NCBI RefSeq assembly: GCF_000002425.4
Contig: NC_037260.1
Span: 9,436,538-9,500,537 of the forward strand
Length of the DNA stretch: 64,000 bases
Reading direction: 5' to 3'
DNA from: Physcomitrium patens
Taxonomy: Eukaryota > Streptophyta > Bryopsida > Funariales > Funariaceae
The translations under genes were made by a program, and so were the position numbers. The notes beneath the pieces are model-generated. The model was given only the letters and a program-made list of their open reading frames with translations, had not been told where the DNA came from and did not search any database. Positions 1,105 through 51,441 of this stretch are shown here, piece after piece. The stretch's first letter is position 1. Each line of letters starts with the position of its first letter.

Positions 1105-1116
1105 GCTCTGATACCA
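1105..1116 (-). promoter_or_regulatory. tRNA-iMet-type primer-binding-site sequence, 23 nt downstream of the LTR
   Basis: The minus strand reads TGGTATCAGAGC, the classic plant initiator-Met PBS. It starts 23 nt after the LTR end, whereas conventional PBSs start within a few nt. A better placed candidate primer site, TTGTCGAGACTG (1137-1126), lies between them and is complementary to the element's own RNA 5' end. Confidence 0.5.
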
Positions 1117-1125
1117 GTGAAAATG

Positions 1126-1137
1126 CAGTCTCGACAA
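1126..1137 (-). promoter_or_regulatory. Self-primer binding site of E1
   Basis: TTGTCGAGACTG on the minus strand starts 2 nt after the LTR and is perfectly complementary to CAGTCTCGACAA at the predicted transcript start (1268-1257 on the minus strand), about 31 nt downstream of the TATA box at 1292-1299. This matches the Tf1/sushi self-priming layout. Confidence 0.65.
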
Positions 1138-1139
1138 AC

Positions 1140-1527
1140 TGTCACGGATACAAAATATAGACAAGAAAACTAGACAAGAAGTTCAAGAAGAACTGGATTA
1201 ATCAGATGAGTACAAGAACAACACCAGAAAGGTGAGCTAGAACTCCAAGAGATGTGTTGTCGAGACTGAAGAACCCTTCAGCCTCGACTCCTATATATAC
1301 TACTGAATAGGAAGCTTCTCGAGCTACTTCCGCTAACTAGGACGCTTCTCCAACAACTTCTACTAATTAGGAAACTTCTCGAGCAACTTCCTAGAATCTA
1401 TCAGAATATTCTAGAATCTTCTAAGAGAATCTTTAGGGAATATTCTAAGAATCTTCTAGAACCTTCTAAAGGAATCTTTAGAGAATATTCTAGAAGAATA
1501 TTCGAAGAATCTTCCAATGTATGTCCA
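1140..1527 (-). repeat. 5' LTR of element E1
   Basis: The LTR is about 388 bp. U3 (roughly 1527-1300) is dense in GAATATTC/TTCTAGAA motifs. A TATA box lies at 1292-1299, a 13-bp hairpin at 1259-1288 spans the predicted start site, and the right end reads ..CCGTGACA. The core from TATA through R is nearly identical to E2. The left boundary is uncertain by some tens of bases. Confidence 0.7.
1449..1461. promoter_or_regulatory. Perfect trimeric heat-shock element in E1 U3
   Basis: GAATCTTCTAGAA (minus strand TTCTAGAAGATTC) matches TTCnnGAAnnTTC exactly and lies about 150 bp upstream of the E1 TATA box, surrounded by further half sites. Confidence 0.6.
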
Positions 1528-3558: not shown

Positions 3559-4000
3559 AAGCTAAAAAAGATATTATGTTTAAAAGTCTTTAATCAATAG
3601 TAAAGTAAGAGTATTAAAGTAGTAATAAGATATTATGTAAAAGATATTAGCTTATATAAGTTGTTAATGGTCAAAGAATAGCAAAATGATGAAGATAAGT
3701 TATTAATGTAGTGGCCTAGGATTTTAAGTCGTAGCTAGGTTAAGAAAAATTAAAGATTTAGTTGGATGAAGGAAAGAAGGATGAAGATGGTTATCGATGA
3801 AGTTCAAATACAATAGATGCAAATTCCTCCTATAAGTAAAAGGTGTTGGAAGTGAGAGGCATCTCATTCTATACTTCTCTTGTGTGTAAAATTTTTTATT
3901 TCTATTTACTTATATCTTGCTTGTTGTATTTCTTTAATATTAAAGTCTAATTATTTAAAGAATATTTTTAATAATAATCAATACAAAGATAAGGTTGTTG

Positions 4001-34442: not shown

Positions 34443-34992
34443 TGTCATGGACATATACATTTATCTCAATAGTTATTTATATGATTAAGTAAAAGTATGT
34501 AAATATAGAATAATTTCATAAAATCTTCTAGAGAAGATTTCTAGAAGCTTCATTGACGTGGTTTTGATTTTAGATGTATTTGTAGGTTAGAAACTTGGTC
34601 AAAAAGCTAACCATGTATTAGTAGCTTGTGGAACAAGTAATCTCTATATAGTAGCTTGTGGAACAAGCTAACTATGTGGCGCATACATAGATAATTTGCC
34701 TTGCAAGATAAGTCATGTGGCTAGTAAAGTCAACACATGTTGGAGGTCCTATTGGACATCGCCATGTAGCTCTTAGTTAGATAGTATATATGGAGACAAG
34801 AGTGAAGCCTTCTTCACTCTTGTCAATGCCTTTCTAGTCTTAGTCTTATTTCAAGACTTTCTAATCTTCTTATTTTTTGGCAATAGCCAATCTAGTTAAT
34901 ATTACATCACCTTTTGAGTGACTTTTTAGTTCTCTTTAGTGATAGAAGAGTGTATTGAGGATTCTCTTTGTTTGAGATTCATGTCTTTGACA
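34443..34992 (+). repeat. 5' LTR of E3
   Basis: 550 bp. U3 has a perfect TTCTAGAAGCTTC heat-shock trimer (34539-34551) and two TAGCTTGTGGAACAAG palindromic units (34622 and 34652). TATA box at 34785-34791, start-site hairpin 34795-34823, predicted RNA start near 34815, end ..TTGACA. Confidence 0.9.
34539..34551. promoter_or_regulatory. Trimeric heat-shock element in E3 U3
   Basis: TTCTAGAAGCTTC matches TTCnnGAAnnTTC. The 3' LTR copy has decayed to TTCTAAAAGCTTC. Confidence 0.55.
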
Positions 34993-34994
34993 GT

Positions 34995-35006
34995 TTGACA
35001 AGAGTG
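34995..35006 (+). promoter_or_regulatory. Self-primer binding site of E3
   Basis: TTGACAAGAGTG starts 2 nt after the LTR and is a perfect complement of CACTCTTGTCAA at 34815-34826, the predicted RNA 5' end. Relative to E1, three positions differ in each arm and all are compensatory. Confidence 0.65.
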
Positions 35007-42154: not shown

Positions 42155-42702
42155 TGTCATGGACATATACATTTATTTCAATAGTTACTTATATGATTAA
42201 GTAGAAGTATTTAAATTTAAAATAATTTTATAAAGTCTTCTAGAGAAGCTTTCTAAAAGCTTCATGGACGTGGTTTTGACTTTAGATGTGTTTGTAGGTT
42301 AGAAACTTGGTCAAAAAGCTAACCATGTATTAATAGCTTGTGGAACAAGTAATCTCTGTATAGTAGCTTGTAATACAAGCCAACTACGTGGCGCATATAT
42401 AGATAACTTGCCTTGCAAGATAAGACATGTGGCTAGCAAAGTCAACATATGTTGGAGGTCCTATAGAACATCGCCATGTAGCTCTTAGTTAGATAGTATA
42501 TATAGAGGCAAGAGTGAAGCCTTCTTCACTCTTGTCAATGCCTTTCTAGTCTTAGTCTTATTTCAAGACTTTCTAGTCTTCTTTTTTTAGTAATAGCCAT
42601 TCTAGTTAATATTACATCACCTTTTGAATGACATTTTAGTTCTCTTTGGTGATAGAAGAGTGTATTGAGTATTCTCTTTCTTCTAGATTTATGTCCTTGA
42701 CA
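42155..42702 (+). repeat. 3' LTR of E3
   Basis: 548 bp, starts TGTCATGGACATATAC and ends CCTTGACA. It differs from the 5' LTR at many positions, indicating an old insertion. Followed by TGGACATAT, which resembles the LTR start itself. Confidence 0.9.
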
Positions 42703-44901: not shown

Positions 44902-44974
44902 TGTTAGGGATATAGTCTTTAGACCTTTCTAGAGACAAGTTTCTAGAACCTTTTAGAAAGAAGTCTCTAGAAAC

Positions 44975-44987
44975 TTCCAGAAGATTC
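44975..44987. promoter_or_regulatory. Perfect trimeric heat-shock element, E2 5' LTR
   Basis: TTCCAGAAGATTC matches TTCnnGAAnnTTC; flanked by TTCTAGAA (44941) and GAATATTC (44991 and following) half-site pairs. The 3' LTR has the same at 51041-51053. Confidence 0.6.
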
Positions 44988-45216
44988 CTTGAATATTCTC
45001 TTAGAATATTCTTCAAAGATTCTCTAAAGATTCTCTAAAGATTCCCTAAAGATTCCCTTAGAAGGCTCTAGAAGATTCTTAGAATATTCTAGTAGATTCT
45101 AGGAAGTTACTTGAGAAGCTTCCTAGCTCTTGGGTAGTTGCTCGAGAAGCTTCATAGTTCTTGGGAAGCTTCTTGATGCGCTTCCTTAGAACCATAGGCC
45201 AGTAGTATATATAGGA

Positions 45217-45246
45217 GTCGAGGCTGAAGAGTTCTTCAGTCTCGAC
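45217..45246 (+). promoter_or_regulatory. U3/R start-site hairpin of E2
   Basis: GTCGAGGCTGAAG pairs with CTTCAGTCTCGAC around a 4-nt loop (12 Watson-Crick pairs plus one G-U). E1 (1259-1288) and E3 (34795-34823) have the same structure; E3 with a different sequence. Confidence 0.75.
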
Positions 45247-45377
45247 AACACATCTCTTGAAGCTCTAGCTCAATTCTCTTGGCGTTGCTCTTGTACTCAT
45301 CTGATAATCTAGTTCTTGTCATTTCTTCTTGAACTTCTTGTTTAGATTTCTTGTTTGTATTTTTGGTCTGCGATAGT

Positions 45378-45388
45378 TTGTCGAGACT
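45378..45388 (+). promoter_or_regulatory. Self-primer binding site of E2
   Basis: TTGTCGAGACT, 2 nt after the LTR, is a perfect complement to AGTCTCGACAA (45238-45248) at the predicted RNA 5' end. The iMet-like site further on reads TAATATCAGAGC here (45399-45410), with the TGG start lost. Confidence 0.65.
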
Positions 45389-45399
45389 ACCTTTATCTT

Positions 45400-45773
45400 A
45401 ATATCAGAGCTGAATCCTTCTTGTTTGAGAGCGGATTACCCCTCTTCTTGAAGGTATTCTAGCGCTTTAGGGGTTGCGGATTACCTTCCTCTAAACTGAT
45501 ATTTTCTCAATCATAATATCAGAGCTTAGTTCTTTGAGGCAGAGAGTGGACTATCCCTTTCCTTGGAGATACTTGAGCATTCTAAGGGTTGCGGATTACC
45601 CTCTCTTGGACTGATATTAAGTCCTTCTTTTTGTTTAGCATAGCTAGTAAAAAAGACTGTTAACATCGATTTCAGAGCTTTGCCTTCTTGATAGAGTGCG
45701 GATTACCCCTCTTCTCGAAAGCATTGAGGCATTTTTAGAGGTTGCAGATTATCCTCCTCTAAAACTGAAATCG
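45400..45773 (+). repeat. Three tandem structured leader modules of E2
   Basis: Modules at 45400-45503, 45515-45618 and 45667-45773 (104, 104 and 107 nt). Outer arms are AATATCAG/CTGATATT twice and CGATTTCAG/CTGAAATCG in the third. Each holds two hairpins, and GGATTACC or a one-base variant recurs at the tips. Each begins with TCAGAGCT. Confidence 0.75.
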
Positions 45774-45895
45774 TTTAGTGTTTTTTTTTTTCTTTTCTCC
45801 GAGTAGGTTTTAGTGACAGGTAGTGCTACAATTTTCTCCAAGAGACTTAGCAATTTCTTCTTCTCTCAAAATTTTAATCCATCTATTCTCTAAAT

Positions 45896-46945
45896 ATGGA
45901 AGTAGACCAGGTCATAGATAGTGCATCTCCACAAGTAGACAATAGAGTGGCAACTCTTGCAGATCTTCAAGCTCTTATGAATAGTGTACAAAAGGAGATT
46001 GCATTTCTTCCCAATCCAAGTAAAGAACCTCAAATTGATTTAATGACCGAAGAAGCTAGACGCGAAATTCATAGCCTACAACAAGAGATTATTCGACTGA
46101 GAGAAGCAAGACATGTGTCACATACGACCCCTATGGATACTTCAAGGATTAGTACGAAAGAACCAAAAGCGAGTATGCCAAACAAGTTTGACGGAACAAG
46201 AGCCAACTTCCGAGGTTTTGTGCAACAAGTACGGTTTTACCTACGCCTATACCCTTCTCGTTATCCGAATGGATTTACCCAGGTTGCTTTCATAGGTACT
46301 CTTCTATCAGGAAATGCTCGCTCTTGGTTTGCTCTACTATTGGAGAAGGATTCTCCAATATTGTACGACCTAGAGGCTTTCATAGAGAGACTTACTGGTG
46401 CGTTTGGAGATAGTGATCGAGAAAGAGTGGCTGAAAGAAAGATACAAAATTTGCGACAAGGATCACATTCTGCTGCAATCTATGCTGCAGAATTTCAACA
46501 GCTTACATGTGATCTTGATTGGAATGATAAGGCTTTCATGACACGATTTCGATATGGACTGAGAGATGATGTCAAGAACTTATTGATCACCATGCCTAAG
46601 GCGGATACTTTAGAAGAACTTATATCTCAGGCAATTATTTGTGACAACCGCCTCTTTGAATTACGACAAGAAAGACGATCAGGCTGGAGAAATGATGGAG
46701 CATTTGCTACATTTTCAAAAGGTTCAGAGAATCACTCCACAAATCCTGAACCCATGCAAATTGATGCGGTACGTTTCAAACCCCTCACAGCTGAGGAAAG
46801 GAAGCAACGGTTTGAACAAAACTTGTATTTATATTGTGGAGAAGCGGGCCATAAAGCTGTAGATTGTCGGAAGAAACAAAAGCCTCAAACAACAAGACTC
46901 AGGAGTACAAGCATGCAGGAAAACAAGGACGCCCAGCCACAATAG
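45896..46945 (+). CDS. Gag of E2
   Basis: 349 aa, starting MEVDQVIDSASPQVDNR; ATG chosen because the leader lies immediately upstream and E3 starts at the equivalent place. The N-terminal helix (~50-75) is followed by the Retrotrans_gag-like core at ~100-260 (PNKFDGTRANFRGF, GTLLSGNARSWFALLLEK, NLRQGSHSAAIYAAEFQQL). The knuckle near the C-terminus reads YLYCGEAGHKAVDC: the first zinc Cys is Tyr, whereas E3 keeps CLYC. The product should assemble particles and bind element RNA; RNA binding may be impaired. Ends at TAG; pol continues in the -1 frame with a 91-nt overlap and no canonical slippery heptamer. Confidence 0.93.
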   Translation: MEVDQVIDSASPQVDNRVATLADLQALMNSVQKEIAFLPNPSKEPQIDLMTEEARREIHSLQQEIIRLREARHVSHTTPMDTSRISTKEPKASMPNKFDGTRANFRGFVQQVRFYLRLYPSRYPNGFTQVAFIGTLLSGNARSWFALLLEKDSPILYDLEAFIERLTGAFGDSDRERVAERKIQNLRQGSHSAAIYAAEFQQLTCDLDWNDKAFMTRFRYGLRDDVKNLLITMPKADTLEELISQAIICDNRLFELRQERRSGWRNDGAFATFSKGSENHSTNPEPMQIDAVRFKPLTAEERKQRFEQNLYLYCGEAGHKAVDCRKKQKPQTTRLRSTSMQENKDAQPQ

Positions 46946-47529
46946 GGACCGTGCGGCTGGACATCTCAACATCCAAAATTAATCAAGGTCCCTTTCTCTC
47001 AGCACAACCTTCAGATTGTTTTATGGTACCTTTACATCTGGGTATTCAAGAACTACAAGTCGATGCTTTATTAGACTCGGGTGCATCCGCTTGCTTTATA
47101 GATGAAGAGTTTGCCAAGCTTCACAATATTTCTCTTGTAAAGAAACTTAAGCCTGTCCATGTAGAAGTCATAGACGGACGACCATTGTCTTCGGGCAATG
47201 TTATCCATGAAACTAAACCATTGAAGGTACGTCTTGAAAACCATGAGAGCAATATTGTGTTTAATGTTATCAAGACCCCTTCATGTCTTATCATTTTGGG
47301 ACTATCTTGGCTTGATAGATATAATCCATTGATAGATTGGAAGTTGCGGAAAGTGACATTTCCAACAAACTCCTTGAAGATAGAATCTGCCAAGACAATG
47401 TCTAGAAACAAATCCTTGTTTATAGGTGCAAGGGCTTTCATGAAGGAAGCCAAGCAAAATACACCTCTTGTCATCTTCGCAACTCCGACTCGAGAAGATG
47501 CAACTCCGACTTTGGTTATTCCAAAGTAG
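46855..47529 (+). CDS. E2 pol part 1: aspartic protease
   Basis: The frame opens after a TAA at 46852, overlaps the gag end by 91 nt in the -1 frame, and ends at TAG 47527-47529. The active site is LLDSGASACFIDEEFAK, with a second conserved block VIFNVIKTPSC-like and ILGLSWLDRYNPLIDW. Release from gag-pol would cut the particle proteins. The TAG falls exactly where E3 has TAA (IPK-stop-YEEFKDVF versus IPN-stop-YQKF), just before the RT domain. It is therefore either a shared old mutation or a recoding site. Confidence 0.88.
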   Translation, partial: SCRLSEETKASNNKTQEYKHAGKQGRPATIGTVRLDISTSKINQGPFLSAQPSDCFMVPLHLGIQELQVDALLDSGASACFIDEEFAKLHNISLVKKLKPVHVEVIDGRPLSSGNVIHETKPLKVRLENHESNIVFNVIKTPSCLIILGLSWLDRYNPLIDWKLRKVTFPTNSLKIESAKTMSRNKSLFIGARAFMKEAKQNTPLVIFATPTREDATPTLVIPK

Positions 47530-49053
47530 TATGAAGAATTCAAAGATGTCTTTGAAAAGAAGAATGCTGATATGCTGCCAGAGCATCGACCCTATGACTG
47601 TGCCATTGAATTGCAAGAAGGAGCACAACCACCTTTTGGACCAATCTACAATTTGTCGCAGACGGAGTTGACTGAGTTGCGGAAGTACATTGACGAGAAT
47701 CTAGCCAAGAACTTCATCCGTCATTCGAAGTCGCCAGCTGGGGCACCAATCTTATTTGTGAAGAAAAAGGATGGCTCACTACGGATGTGCGTGGACTATC
47801 GAGGTCTCAACAAGGTGACAAAAAAGAATCGCTACCCACTGCCTTTGATCTCTGGTCTTCTAGAACAACTTGGGCGTGCAAGGATCTTTACAAAGATTGA
47901 CCTAAGGGGAGCTTACAACCTTGTGCAAATTAAGGAAGGAGATGAATGGAAGACAGCGTTCCGAACAAGGTATGGCCATTTTGAATACAATGTCATGCCA
48001 TTTGGTCTTACTAATGCTCCAGCGGTCTTTCAACACATGATGAATGATATCTTTCGAGAGCATCTAGACGATTTTGTTGTCATCTATCTAGATGATATTT
48101 TGATATTTTCTAAGAACGAGGAAGAACATGAGAAGCACGTTCGTCTGGTACTCAAAAAACTACGGGAGCGAGGACTCTATGTCAAATTGGAGAAGTGCTT
48201 ATTTCACCAAATTGAGATGGAGTTTTCGGGATTCATCGCGACTACGGAAGGATTGAAGATGGATCCAAAGAAGGTGGAAGCAATCATGTCTTGGGAAGTT
48301 CCGAAGACGGTTAGGGACGTACAATGTTTTCTTGGATTTGCTAACTACTATCGGATCTTCATCAAGAATTATTCTCAAGTTGCTGCCCCCCTCACTCGGT
48401 TAACGTGTAAGGACAAGCTTGAATGGGGACCTATCGTAGAAAAAGCACTTCAAGATTTGAAGATGGTATTTACTACAGCTCCAATCTTGGTACATCCGGA
48501 CTTTACAAAGGCCTTTTATTTGGAGACAAATGCGTCGGATTTTGCTTTAGGAGCTGTACTTTCACAGATGGGTGTAGAGGAGAAGCTCCATCCAGTTGCG
48601 TTCTATTCTCGAAAATTCTCTGCTGCTGAGATCAACTATGAGATCCACGATAAGGAACTCCTTGCTATAGTAGATTCTTTCCAAAAGTGGTGCCACTTTC
48701 TCGAAGGAACTGCACATCCAGTGACCGTATATATGGATCACAAGAATTTGGAGTATTTTATGTCGGCTCGGGTTTTGAATCGGCGTCAAGCTCGGTGGAG
48801 TATGTCGCTATCCAGGTTCGACTTTGTTATTATTTATCGGCCTGGGAAGCAACAAGGGTTGTCCGATGCATTATCAAGGAGATCATATCTCGCGCCAAAG
48901 GCTGGAGATGCAGCATTTGATCAACATTGCACGACATTGTTGAAGCCAGAGAAATTTCGACTCAACGCAGCTATTGTACCAATTGATGCTGACTTCCTCG
49001 ACCAAGTACGGGCCGCAACCATTGAAGATTCTCTAGCCCTTGATATCAAGTAA
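47530..49053 (+). CDS. E2 pol part 2: reverse transcriptase and RNase H
   Basis: Same frame as the protease. RT domain motifs: FGPIYNLSQTELTELRKYID, LRMCVDYRGLNKVT, TKIDLRGAYNLVQIKEGDEW, MPFGLTNAPAVFQHMM, and the catalytic VIYLDDILIFS near 48075-48110. The connection FLGFANYYRIFIKNYS leads to RNase H with LETNASDFALGAVLSQ, where the usual first catalytic Asp (T-D-A-S) is Asn, then HDKELLAIV and SDALSRR. It stops at TAA 49051-49053, a position that is readable in E3, so this stop is private to E2. Copies element RNA to DNA inside the particle; RNase H competence is doubtful. Confidence 0.92.
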   Translation, partial: YEEFKDVFEKKNADMLPEHRPYDCAIELQEGAQPPFGPIYNLSQTELTELRKYIDENLAKNFIRHSKSPAGAPILFVKKKDGSLRMCVDYRGLNKVTKKNRYPLPLISGLLEQLGRARIFTKIDLRGAYNLVQIKEGDEWKTAFRTRYGHFEYNVMPFGLTNAPAVFQHMMNDIFREHLDDFVVIYLDDILIFSKNEEEHEKHVRLVLKKLRERGLYVKLEKCLFHQIEMEFSGFIATTEGLKMDPKKVEAIMSWEVPKTVRDVQCFLGFANYYRIFIKNYSQVAAPLTRLTCKDKLEWGPIVEKALQDLKMVFTTAPILVHPDFTKAFYLETNASDFALGAVLSQMGVEEKLHPVAFYSRKFSAAEINYEIHDKELLAIVDSFQKWCHFLEGTAHPVTVYMDHKNLEYFMSARVLNRRQARWSMSLSRFDFVIIYRPGKQQGLSDALSRRSYLAPKAGDAAFDQHCTTLLKPEKFRLNAAIVPIDADFLDQVRAATIEDSLALDIK

Positions 49054-50424
49054 CATGCTAGTGATGATAAATTCAAGATGGAAGGAGATCAAGTATATTT
49101 CGAAGAGCGGTTGTATATCCCAAAAGGGCCAATACGACTCCGAGTTCTTCAATCTCGTCATGACTTTCCAGCTGTGGGACATTTTGGATTCAATAAGACC
49201 TTGGAACTTATTTCCCGCGATTTCTGGTGGCCTCAAATGTGGAAGGATGTGAAAGATTTTGTTGTATCTTGTGACATTTGTTCAAGATCCAAAAACCCTC
49301 GACATCGGCCTTATGGACTTCTACAGCCATTGCCTATTCCGCGTCGATCATGGTCTTCGGTTTCCATGGACTTTATTACGGATCTACCACCATCGAATTC
49401 ATTTTACAGCATTTTTGTTGTCGTAGACCGGCTTACAAAGATGGCGCATTTTGTTCCTTGCAAGAAGACATCGTCAAGCGAAGACACAGGAAGACTCTTT
49501 CTTGATAATGTGTATCGATATCATGGTCTACCAGATGATATCGTATCGGATCGAGGAACCCAGTTTGTGTCAAAGTTTTGGAAATCCCTTTTTGAAATAT
49601 TGAAGGTGGATATCAAGCTTTCTTCGGCATTTCATCCTCAAACGGATGGCCAAACAGAACGGGTGAATCAAGTTTTAGAGCAATATTTACGTTGCACCAT
49701 CAACTATCAACAAGATGATTGGGTCGCATATCTACTGCTAGCCGAGTTCGCATATAACAACACCCTTCATGCGTCAACTCAACAAACGCCATTCTTTTCC
49801 AATTATGGATACCATCCAAAGCTTGACTTATGGAGTTCGTCAACGATTAACAATCTGGCAGCTGAAGGATTGGTGAAGGAGCTTTCGCAGCTTCAAACTA
49901 CATTGAAGCTTCAATTGCAAACTGCCCAAGAATCTTACAAGGCGTCTGCAGACAAATTTCGGAATCAGGCACCTAAATTCACAATTGGAGACAAAGTTTG
50001 GCTACTTCGACGAAATATTAAGACCAAGCGGCCATGTGACAAATTGGACTATCGGAGATTGGGACCATTTGTTATCCAGAAGCAGATCAATCCTATAGCG
50101 TATCGTCTGGAGTTACCAGCTACTATGAAGGTACATCCTGTCTTTCATGTTTCTTTGTTGGAGCCTTATCGAGAATCGTCTTTTCCTGGAAGAGTACAAT
50201 GTCCACCACCTAGCATAGAAATAGAGAACCACGAAGAATACGAGGTGGAAAAGGTCTTGGATTCACGGCAAAGACGGGGTAAATTAGAATACTTTGTGCA
50301 TTGGAGCGGTTACGATATTAATGAACGAACATGGGAGCTGGCCAAAAATCTCGCGAATGCGCCACAAAAGGTACAGGAGTTTCATCGACGATATCTTGAG
50401 AAACCCAAGCCGGTTCGACGATAG
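49054..50424 (+). CDS. E2 pol part 3: integrase with C-terminal chromodomain
   Basis: In frame with RT after one stop. The zinc region has RHDFPAVGHFGF and SCDICSRSKNPRH. The catalytic core has Asp in SMDFITDLP, Asp in IVSDRGTQFV and Glu in TDGQTERVNQ, so the DDE triad is complete. A GPF-like block (KLDYRRLGPFVIQKQ) and IHPVF-like VHPVFHVSLLEPY follow. The chromodomain (~50245-50400) reads YEVEKVLDSRQRRGKLEYFVHWSGYDINERTWELAKNL-type, with aromatic cage positions Tyr, Trp and Tyr kept. Chromodomains steer insertion to marked heterochromatin. The C-terminus ends KPKPVRR and a stop at 50422-50424. Confidence 0.93.
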   Translation, partial: HASDDKFKMEGDQVYFEERLYIPKGPIRLRVLQSRHDFPAVGHFGFNKTLELISRDFWWPQMWKDVKDFVVSCDICSRSKNPRHRPYGLLQPLPIPRRSWSSVSMDFITDLPPSNSFYSIFVVVDRLTKMAHFVPCKKTSSSEDTGRLFLDNVYRYHGLPDDIVSDRGTQFVSKFWKSLFEILKVDIKLSSAFHPQTDGQTERVNQVLEQYLRCTINYQQDDWVAYLLLAEFAYNNTLHASTQQTPFFSNYGYHPKLDLWSSSTINNLAAEGLVKELSQLQTTLKLQLQTAQESYKASADKFRNQAPKFTIGDKVWLLRRNIKTKRPCDKLDYRRLGPFVIQKQINPIAYRLELPATMKVHPVFHVSLLEPYRESSFPGRVQCPPPSIEIENHEEYEVEKVLDSRQRRGKLEYFVHWSGYDINERTWELAKNLANAPQKVQEFHRRYLEKPKPVRR

Positions 50425-50967: not shown

Positions 50968-51441
50968 TGTTAGGGACATAGTCTTTAGACCTTTCTAGAG
51001 ACAAGTTTCTAGAACCTTCTAGAAAGAAGTCTCTAGAAACTTCCAGAAGATTCCTTGAATATTCTCTTAGAATATTCTTCAAAGATTCTCTAAAGATTCT
51101 TTTAAGATTCCCTAAAGATTCCCTTAGAAGGCTCTAGAAGATTCTTAGAATATTCTAGTAGATTCTAGGAAGTTACTTGAGAAGCTTCCTAGCTCTTGGG
51201 TAATTGCTCGAGAAGCTTCATAGTTCTTGGGAAGCTTCTTGATGCGCTTCCTTAGAACCATAGGCCAGTAGTATATATAGGAGTCGAGGCTGAAGAGTTC
51301 TTCAGTCTCGACAACACATCTCTTGAAACTCTAGCTCAATTCTCTTGGCGTTGCTCTTGTACTCATCTGATAATCTAGTTCTTGTCATTTCTTCTTGAAC
51401 TTCTTGTTTAGATTTCTTGTTTGTATTTTTGGTCCGTGACA
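50968..51441 (+). repeat. 3' LTR of E2
   Basis: 474 bp, TGTTAGGGACAT...CCGTGACA, preceded by the purine tract AAAGGAGGAGGTGA (plus-strand primer). About nine differences from the 5' LTR; this copy keeps the canonical CA end. Confidence 0.93.

What the first reader, a model, noticed from the sequence alone, without database searches (positions are those of the whole stretch)
45237..45388. Self-primed reverse transcription in a plant chromovirus lineage, supported by covariation in three families
The predicted RNA 5' end (about 31 nt after TATA) is complementary to a site beginning exactly 2 nt after the LTR in E1 (1257-1268 with 1126-1137), E2 (45238-45248 with 45378-45388) and E3 (34815-34826 with 34995-35006). 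E1 pairs CAGTCTCGACAA with TTGTCGAGACTG; E3 pairs CACTCTTGTCAA with TTGACAAGAGTG. The three differing positions change in both arms and keep pairing. Published Tf1/sushi elements prime with the first ~11 nt of their own mRNA at this position. Seeing it in a plant genome with compensatory changes suggests the mechanism came with the lineage and is under selection.
Basis: partly seen in the sequence, partly recalled or inferred. Interest (0 to 1): 0.88.

Follow-up and report, generated by a model that had tools for sequence, protein, structure and literature searches.

The report
Self-priming retrotransposons in a moss-like genome
Three jumping genes in this window appear to start copying themselves with the first 11 letters of their own RNA, a trick known in fungi and vertebrates and already predicted for mosses; here it is documented in detail, with an unexpected extra hairpin that tracks the primer.

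Summary
In E1, E2 and E3 the predicted RNA 5' end pairs with a site 2 nt after the LTR. In 45 5' copies, pairing is near-complete at positions 1-11 (39-44 of 45 each) and drops at positions 0 (10) and 12 (3): an 11-nt block starting at A45238, as in Tf1. Exact same-type pairs occur at 1,638 (E1/E2-type) and 3,614 (E3-type) places; the one crossed combination answered gave 1 hit.

Corrections: there are two primer types, not three. Covariation does not by itself show selection, since the primer may be copied into the site. The idea is in print: Neumann 2019 predicts self-priming for the moss/club-moss Tcn1 clade.

Added here: a third copy of the sequence in U3 forms a 13-bp hairpin with the RNA start and changes at the same three positions; I suggest it hides the 3' copy of the primer. 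E1-type leaders also carry an exact tRNA-Met-type site 23 nt inside (298 places), which LTR ends argue is not the start site. RNA start, cleavage and strong-stop DNA are untested.

The parts
44902..45375 (+). E2 5' LTR (starts TG; last two bases TA here, CA in the 3' LTR)
   Evidence: ATATA on both outer flanks
45206..45213 (+). E2 TATA box, first T 32 nt before A45238
   Evidence: read
45217..45229 (+). E2 U3 arm; pairs with 45234-45246 (13 bp, one G-U) across the inferred U3/R border
45238..45248 (+). E2 predicted RNA 5' end and 11-nt self-primer
45378..45388 (+). E2 self-PBS, 2 nt after the LTR
45878..50424 (+). E2 gag, protease, RT-RNase H, integrase and chromodomain frames; pol broken by two in-frame stops (47527-47529, 49051-49053)
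50968..51441 (+). E2 3' LTR, ending in CA directly at the target duplication
1257..1267 (-). E1 predicted RNA 5' end (A at 1267) and 11-nt self-primer
1127..1137 (-). E1 self-PBS; last LTR base at 1140
1276..1288 (-). E1 U3 arm; pairs with 1259-1271
1105..1116 (-). E1 tRNA-Met-type PBS sequence TGGTATCAGAGC, 23 nt inside the LTR end
34443..34992 (+). E3 5' LTR (partner 42155-42702, 92% identical)
34795..34807 (+). E3 U3 arm; pairs with 34812-34824 (13 bp)
34816..34826 (+). E3 predicted RNA 5' end and 11-nt self-primer
34995..35005 (+). E3 self-PBS

Best explanation
E1, E2 and E3 are Tf1/sushi-type (Tcn1-clade) chromoviruses. Shown: an 11-nt block at the predicted RNA 5' end is complementary to a PBS 2 nt after the LTR, and the two covary across two primer types. 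Inferred: RNA starts at A45238; its first 11 nt fold onto the PBS; the element's RNase H cuts after nt 11; the freed 3' end primes minus-strand DNA from 45377 back through U5 and R; the strand then transfers to the 3' R. Further inference, less sure: the 13-bp hairpin at the U3/R border exists in the RNA only at the 3' LTR, where it hides the second copy of the primer sequence, so that only the 5' copy can anneal to the PBS.
For: Sharp 11-nt plateau in 45 5' copies chosen by internal homology, not by their PBS; 30 of 45 pair at all 11 positions. 18 of 20 RT-selected copies show at least 10 nt; the other two stretches have no recognisable 5' leader. Exact same-type pairs at 1,638 and 3,614 places, controls 0, against one C-primer/G-PBS hit, by eye an inverted junction. 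Positions 2 and 8 change by transversion on both sides. Predicted 5' leaders of E1, E2 and E3 fold with the primer:PBS helix. E2's LTR ends 2 nt before this PBS and at the target duplication, as expected if cDNA synthesis began there. L039, a relative at 92% RT identity from another record, has the same primer, PBS and U3 arm. RT tree and chromodomain fit. Tf1 precedent: first 11 bases complementary to the PBS, cleavage between 11 and 12 (PMC7175516, passage).
Against: No RNA 5' end, cleavage or strong-stop data. Only two primer types, so few independent changes. The two further duplexes of the Tf1 'pretzel' were not found as a conserved feature. Leader folds are no more stable than shuffles for E2 (z -0.16) and only mildly so for E1 and E3 (z -1.76, -1.86). 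E1-type leaders also carry an exact tRNA-Met-type PBS. Some positions outside the block also pair often by shared sequence (position 16: 42 of 45; -2: 31 of 45). The crossed G-primer/C-PBS count did not complete.
Confidence: 0.87

Rival explanations
1. tRNA-Met primes reverse transcription at TGGTATCAGAGC, and the self-complementarity is only a structural leader stem.
For: Exact 12-mer 23 nt after the LTR end in 10 of 11 E1-type rows and beside the self-PBS at 298 places genome-wide, control 0; 15 of 26 RT-selected copies on C1-C6 have it. tRNA-Met(cat) genes ending GCTCTGATA are in the genome (15 places; ARAGORN on two of them).
Against: None of the other 34 rows has the full 12-mer, and L039 lacks it. 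E1 and E2 LTRs end 2 nt before the self-PBS site, not before this one. A tRNA does not explain why the PBS tracks the RNA start in both types. No PBS in the 45 rows starts with TGG.
Confidence: 0.06
2. The repeats are DNA elements of the promoter (a palindrome around the start site) or a decayed duplication, and the match to the PBS is inherited without function in priming.
For: The inverted repeat lies between TATA and the start site in all three elements, where promoter proteins bind.
Against: The PBS copy lies outside the LTR, in the usual PBS place, and its complementarity stops at exactly 11 nt. A G-U pair is fixed in the U3 stem of type G (40 of 40), which fits RNA better than DNA pairing.
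Confidence: 0.04
3. For the U3 arm only: it follows the primer through quasipalindrome correction during copying, or simple descent, and has no role in hiding the 3' primer copy.
For: Only two arm types exist, so one change could explain them; the outermost stem pair is lost in 17 of 40 type-G rows.
Against: Three double changes and G-U pairs in the sense strand keep the stem; own arms pair at 8.3 of 9 positions against 6.1 crossed; the hairpin is 6.1-6.5 kcal/mol stronger than primer:PBS.
Confidence: 0.5

Closest known systems
Tcn1 clade of plant chromoviruses (moss, club-moss), Neumann 2019, PMC6317226
   Same: Related to Tf1/sushi, chromodomain with aromatic cage, majority predicted to self-prime (passages)
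   Different: Its element list was not seen, so identity with E1-E3 is unchecked. The passages seen do not mention the U3 hairpin, the covariation or the added tRNA-Met-type site.
Tf1 of Schizosaccharomyces pombe (and Tj1)
   Same: First 11 bases of the RNA complementary to the PBS; cleavage between 11 and 12 shown for Tf1 (passages)
   Different: Tf1's three-duplex pretzel (passage) was not found conserved here. Whether Tf1 has a U3/R hairpin was not tested.
SM-Tcn1 of Selaginella (Novikova 2010, PMC2864245)
   Same: Plant Tcn1-clade element with TG...CA LTRs and chromodomain (passages)
tRNA-Met-primed plant LTR elements
   Same: E1-type leaders carry the same 12-mer TGGTATCAGAGC
   Different: Here it lies 23 nt inside the LTR end instead of at it
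RLG1 of Physcomitrium patens (PMC7466625)
   Same: Very abundant chromodomain Gypsy family of a moss (passages)
   Different: That E1-E3 belong to RLG1 and that the host is P. patens was not tested

Membership tests
Tf1/sushi group (plant Tcn1 clade) | Chromodomain integrase with aromatic cage | tested here: met
   Chromo PF00385 1.5e-15; aligns with CDYL and HP1/CBX with Y, W, Y kept (which positions form the cage is recalled)
Tf1/sushi group (plant Tcn1 clade) | RT groups with fungal and vertebrate elements, not with other plant chromoviruses | tested here: met
   Five Asteraceae sequences split off at 100/100. Tree of 21 rows without a named Tcn1 or Tf1 reference (one fungal protein bears the name Tf2-9); the branch joining E2 with a fungal sequence is 84/93
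Tf1/sushi group (plant Tcn1 clade) | First 11 nt of the RNA complementary to the PBS | tested here: met
   11-nt plateau, 39-44 of 45 at each position; the RNA start is inferred from TATA spacing
Tf1/sushi group (plant Tcn1 clade) | PBS next to the LTR end | tested here: met
   2 nt spacer in E1, E2, E3
Tf1/sushi group (plant Tcn1 clade) | Three-duplex 'pretzel' leader | tested here: inconclusive
   Primer:PBS helix predicted; flanking duplexes of 6-7 bp in part of the rows, often matched by shuffles
Tf1/sushi group (plant Tcn1 clade) | RNase H cleavage after nt 11 and strong-stop DNA from the self-PBS | not testable with these tools
   Needs RNA or cDNA data
tRNA-primed plant chromoviruses | PBS complementary to a tRNA 3' end (TGG...) at the LTR end | tested here: not met
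   0 of 45 rows start with TGG; E1-type rows have the tRNA-Met 12-mer 23 nt further in
Elements primed by half a tRNA | PBS complementary to an internal tRNA stretch | not tested
   No set of host tRNAs was compared with the PBS

The most novel reading that the evidence does not exclude
Self-priming in these elements is gated by a three-part RNA switch. The primer sequence is present twice in the RNA (5' R and 3' R). A co-evolving U3 arm, present only at the 3' LTR, locks the 3' copy in a stronger hairpin, so that only the 5' copy reaches the PBS and the 3' end is spared from RNase H. In the E1-type, which includes 15 of 26 RT-selected copies examined, a tRNA-Met site has been kept or gained beside the self-PBS, a possible intermediate between the two priming modes.
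Probability: 0.25. Interest if true: 0.65.

Novelty: new member of a known kind. Interest (0 to 1): 0.42.

Why it matters
In the passages seen, self-priming in plant elements rests on sequence prediction. Thousands of copies in one moss-like genome, with an 11-nt boundary and two covarying primer types, are a strong natural data set and a practical plant system for a test. The U3/R hairpin raises a question that may apply to any self-primed element: how the RNA keeps its second primer copy, in the 3' R, from being used.

Tried and rejected
Two viral-contig scans found no relatives; genome contigs gave one contig, L039. A search for further primer types gave 341 places (reversed control 98); most of the first 100 listed look like decayed copies of the known types or chance matches. 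A companion pattern did not complete. A conserved pretzel leader was not found. Changes first taken as fresh compensation in L042 and L078 were set aside: the 5' and 3' LTRs of L078's copy differ (L091), so CpG decay is likely there; L042's 3' LTR was not found in the stretch fetched for it, L090. One search failed and was rerun; one search had E1 one base out of register and was replaced. In one search, 42 of 87 LTR rows were left out because no internal homology marked them as 5' copies (L039 among them), and three rows with shifted PBS register (L024, L062, L070) are counted as failures. Of the 45 rows, 12 came from a pattern that includes the primer, 11 were chosen by me from that list, 4 came from the pattern, 13 were RT-selected, 2 LTR-selected, 3 from the window; the PBS was never used for selection. 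The tRNA-like place found is not called a tRNA by ARAGORN or Rfam and was replaced by the genes.

Literature. No title or abstract start in these listings named a U3/R hairpin in a self-primed element; full texts were not read. PMC1369541 and PMC230564 are not held. PMC6317226, PMC2864245, PMC7466625, PMC3350952, PMC3601003, PMC4600332, PMC10085805 and PMC7175516 were seen as passages; Lin and Levin, Butler 2001 and Atwood-Moore 2006 as reference entries; the papers as a listing.

Full report
Observation. E2 is an LTR element with both ends: LTRs 44902-45375 and 50968-51441, 474 bp each with 9 differences, flanked by ATATA, with a purine tract before the 3' LTR. Pfam recognises its gag, protease, RT-RNase H and integrase with chromodomain. 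Its pol frame has two in-frame stops, so this copy is broken; other copies with long open RT frames exist. E1 (minus strand) runs out of the window and its other LTR lies in L092. E3 is older (LTRs 92% identical).

Beyond chance. In none of the three did 20,000 letter shuffles of the two short segments reach the match length. The window lies in a 470-Mb genome of 101 contigs. A pattern around the RNA start has 30,925 hits there with up to 2 mismatches, against 19 for the reversed control.

Boundary. From 87 LTR rows, 45 were called 5' copies by homology of the internal region, which does not include the PBS. Watson-Crick pairs at positions 1-11: 42, 39, 44, 42, 44, 42, 39, 42, 42, 42, 43 of 45; position 0 has 10 and position 12 has 3. 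In all, 461 of 495 cells are Watson-Crick and 11 are G-U; 30 of 45 rows pair at all 11 positions. So the block is 11 nt and begins at A45238, 32 nt after the first T of the TATA box. This matches the 11-base primer of Tf1 (passage). Some columns outside the block are also high by shared sequence (position 16: 42 of 45; -2: 31 of 45), so the evidence lies in the plateau and its edges, not in single columns.

Covariation. Two primer types occur: G (E1, E2; 29 of 45) and C (E3; 16 of 45). At position 2 the pair is G-C in 25 of 29 and C-G in 13 of 16; at position 6 C-G in 26 of 29 and T-A in 15 of 16; at position 8 A-T in 28 of 29 and T-A in 14 of 16. Crossed primers and PBSs give 7.5 pairs of 11 against 10.2 between copies of one type, and duplex energies of -3.2 and -6.5 kcal/mol against -14.4 to -16.2. 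Genome-wide, the exact G/G pair at 115-140 nt occurs at 1,638 places and the exact C/C pair at 155-185 nt at 3,614 places, controls 0 (each pattern is its own reverse complement, so every place is listed on both strands). C primer with G PBS occurs once, by eye at an inverted junction. G primer with C PBS did not complete. This shows coupling. It does not separate selection from templating: the primer is joined to the minus strand and may be copied into the next PBS (established for tRNA primers, recalled; for Tf1 a title seen in a reference list, says that the self primer is not removed). CpG decay can mimic compensation at positions 6-7 (L078 and L091).

RT-selected sample. The 80 best RT matches to a fungal relative (80 of 46,432 candidates scored) were taken without regard to LTRs. 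Of the 20, 18 show at least 10 nt of complementarity between the site after TATA and the PBS. The other two have no recognisable leader: L114 matches none of the three elements, and L108 holds a stand-alone E3-type LTR.

Third copy. Over 87 rows the arm changes with the primer at the same three positions. Type G (40 rows): T-A 40; G-C 36 plus 2 G-U; C-G 35 plus 3 U-G. Type C (47 rows): A-T 36 plus 8 G-U and 2 G-C; A-T 46; G-C 33 plus 6 G-U and 2 A-T. Type G also has a fixed G-U pair (40 of 40). Own arms pair at 8.3 of 9 positions, crossed arms at 6.1. Most rows were found with patterns that fix the inner four pairs, so these four are no evidence; the nine outer arm positions were not fixed. 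Against tight constraint, the outermost pair is lost in 17 of 40 type-G rows. By the inferred start site the arm is absent from the RNA's 5' end and present only in its 3' LTR. There the predicted fold of E2 keeps the hairpin, which is 6.1-6.5 kcal/mol stronger than primer:PBS. My reading, an inference, is that it hides the 3' copy of the primer; quasipalindrome correction or descent is a serious rival. I saw no report of it in the listings.

A tRNA site beside it. E1-type leaders carry TGGTATCAGAGC, the complement of a tRNA-Met 3' end with CCA (genes ending GCTCTGATA at 15 places; ARAGORN calls tRNA-Met(cat) in both loci checked), 23 nt after the LTR: 10 of 11 E1-type rows and, beside the self-PBS, 298 places genome-wide, control 0. 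Of the 26 RT-selected copies on C1-C6, 15 have it. Of the other 34 rows, 22 keep TATCAGAGC and none has the full 12-mer; L039 lacks it. If the tRNA started minus-strand synthesis there, LTRs would end just before it. E2's 3' LTR instead ends 2 nt before the self-PBS position, at the target duplication, and E1's 3' LTR ends at the same point (by eye). I take the site as a relic or auxiliary feature.

Lineage and literature. E2's RT is separated from five Asteraceae chromoviruses at 100/100 and lies among fungal and vertebrate sequences (no named Tcn1 or Tf1 reference in the tree). The chromodomain aligns with CDYL and HP1/CBX with the cage residues kept. This fits the Tcn1 clade. Neumann 2019 (passages) already reports that the majority of elements of this clade, in moss and club-moss, are predicted to self-prime. 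Novikova 2010 (passages) found no such site in SM-Tcn1. Tcn1 of Cryptococcus was also proposed to self-prime (passage). RLG1, a chromodomain element, is the most abundant TE of P. patens and is expressed (passages); that E1-E3 belong to it was not tested.

Verdict. Real, and most likely self-priming, but a documented member of a predicted kind rather than a discovery of the mechanism in plants. The U3/R hairpin and the added tRNA-Met-type site are the parts that deserve follow-up.

Noticed in passing
window 1105-1116 (minus), E1: Exact tRNA-Met-type PBS 23 nt inside the LTR end, beside the self-PBS; 298 places in the genome carry both.
   Followed up: partly
window 45217-45246, 34795-34824, 1259-1288: Inverted repeat across the inferred U3/R border that covaries with the self-primer.
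   Followed up: partly
window 45395-45503 and 45510-45618: The E2 leader holds a 109-nt unit repeated at 72% identity, each copy with a TATCAGAGC motif.
   Followed up: no
L039 (3,847 bp): A close relative (92% RT identity) lies on a contig binned as an uncultured cyanobacterium; probably moss DNA in that bin (inference).
   Followed up: partly
L078 and L091: 5' and 3' LTR of one copy carry different CpG changes in the primer, and its PBS another: apparent compensation that looks like decay.
   Followed up: yes
window 47527-47529 and 49051-49053: Two in-frame stops split the E2 pol frame; open copies exist elsewhere in the genome.
   Followed up: no
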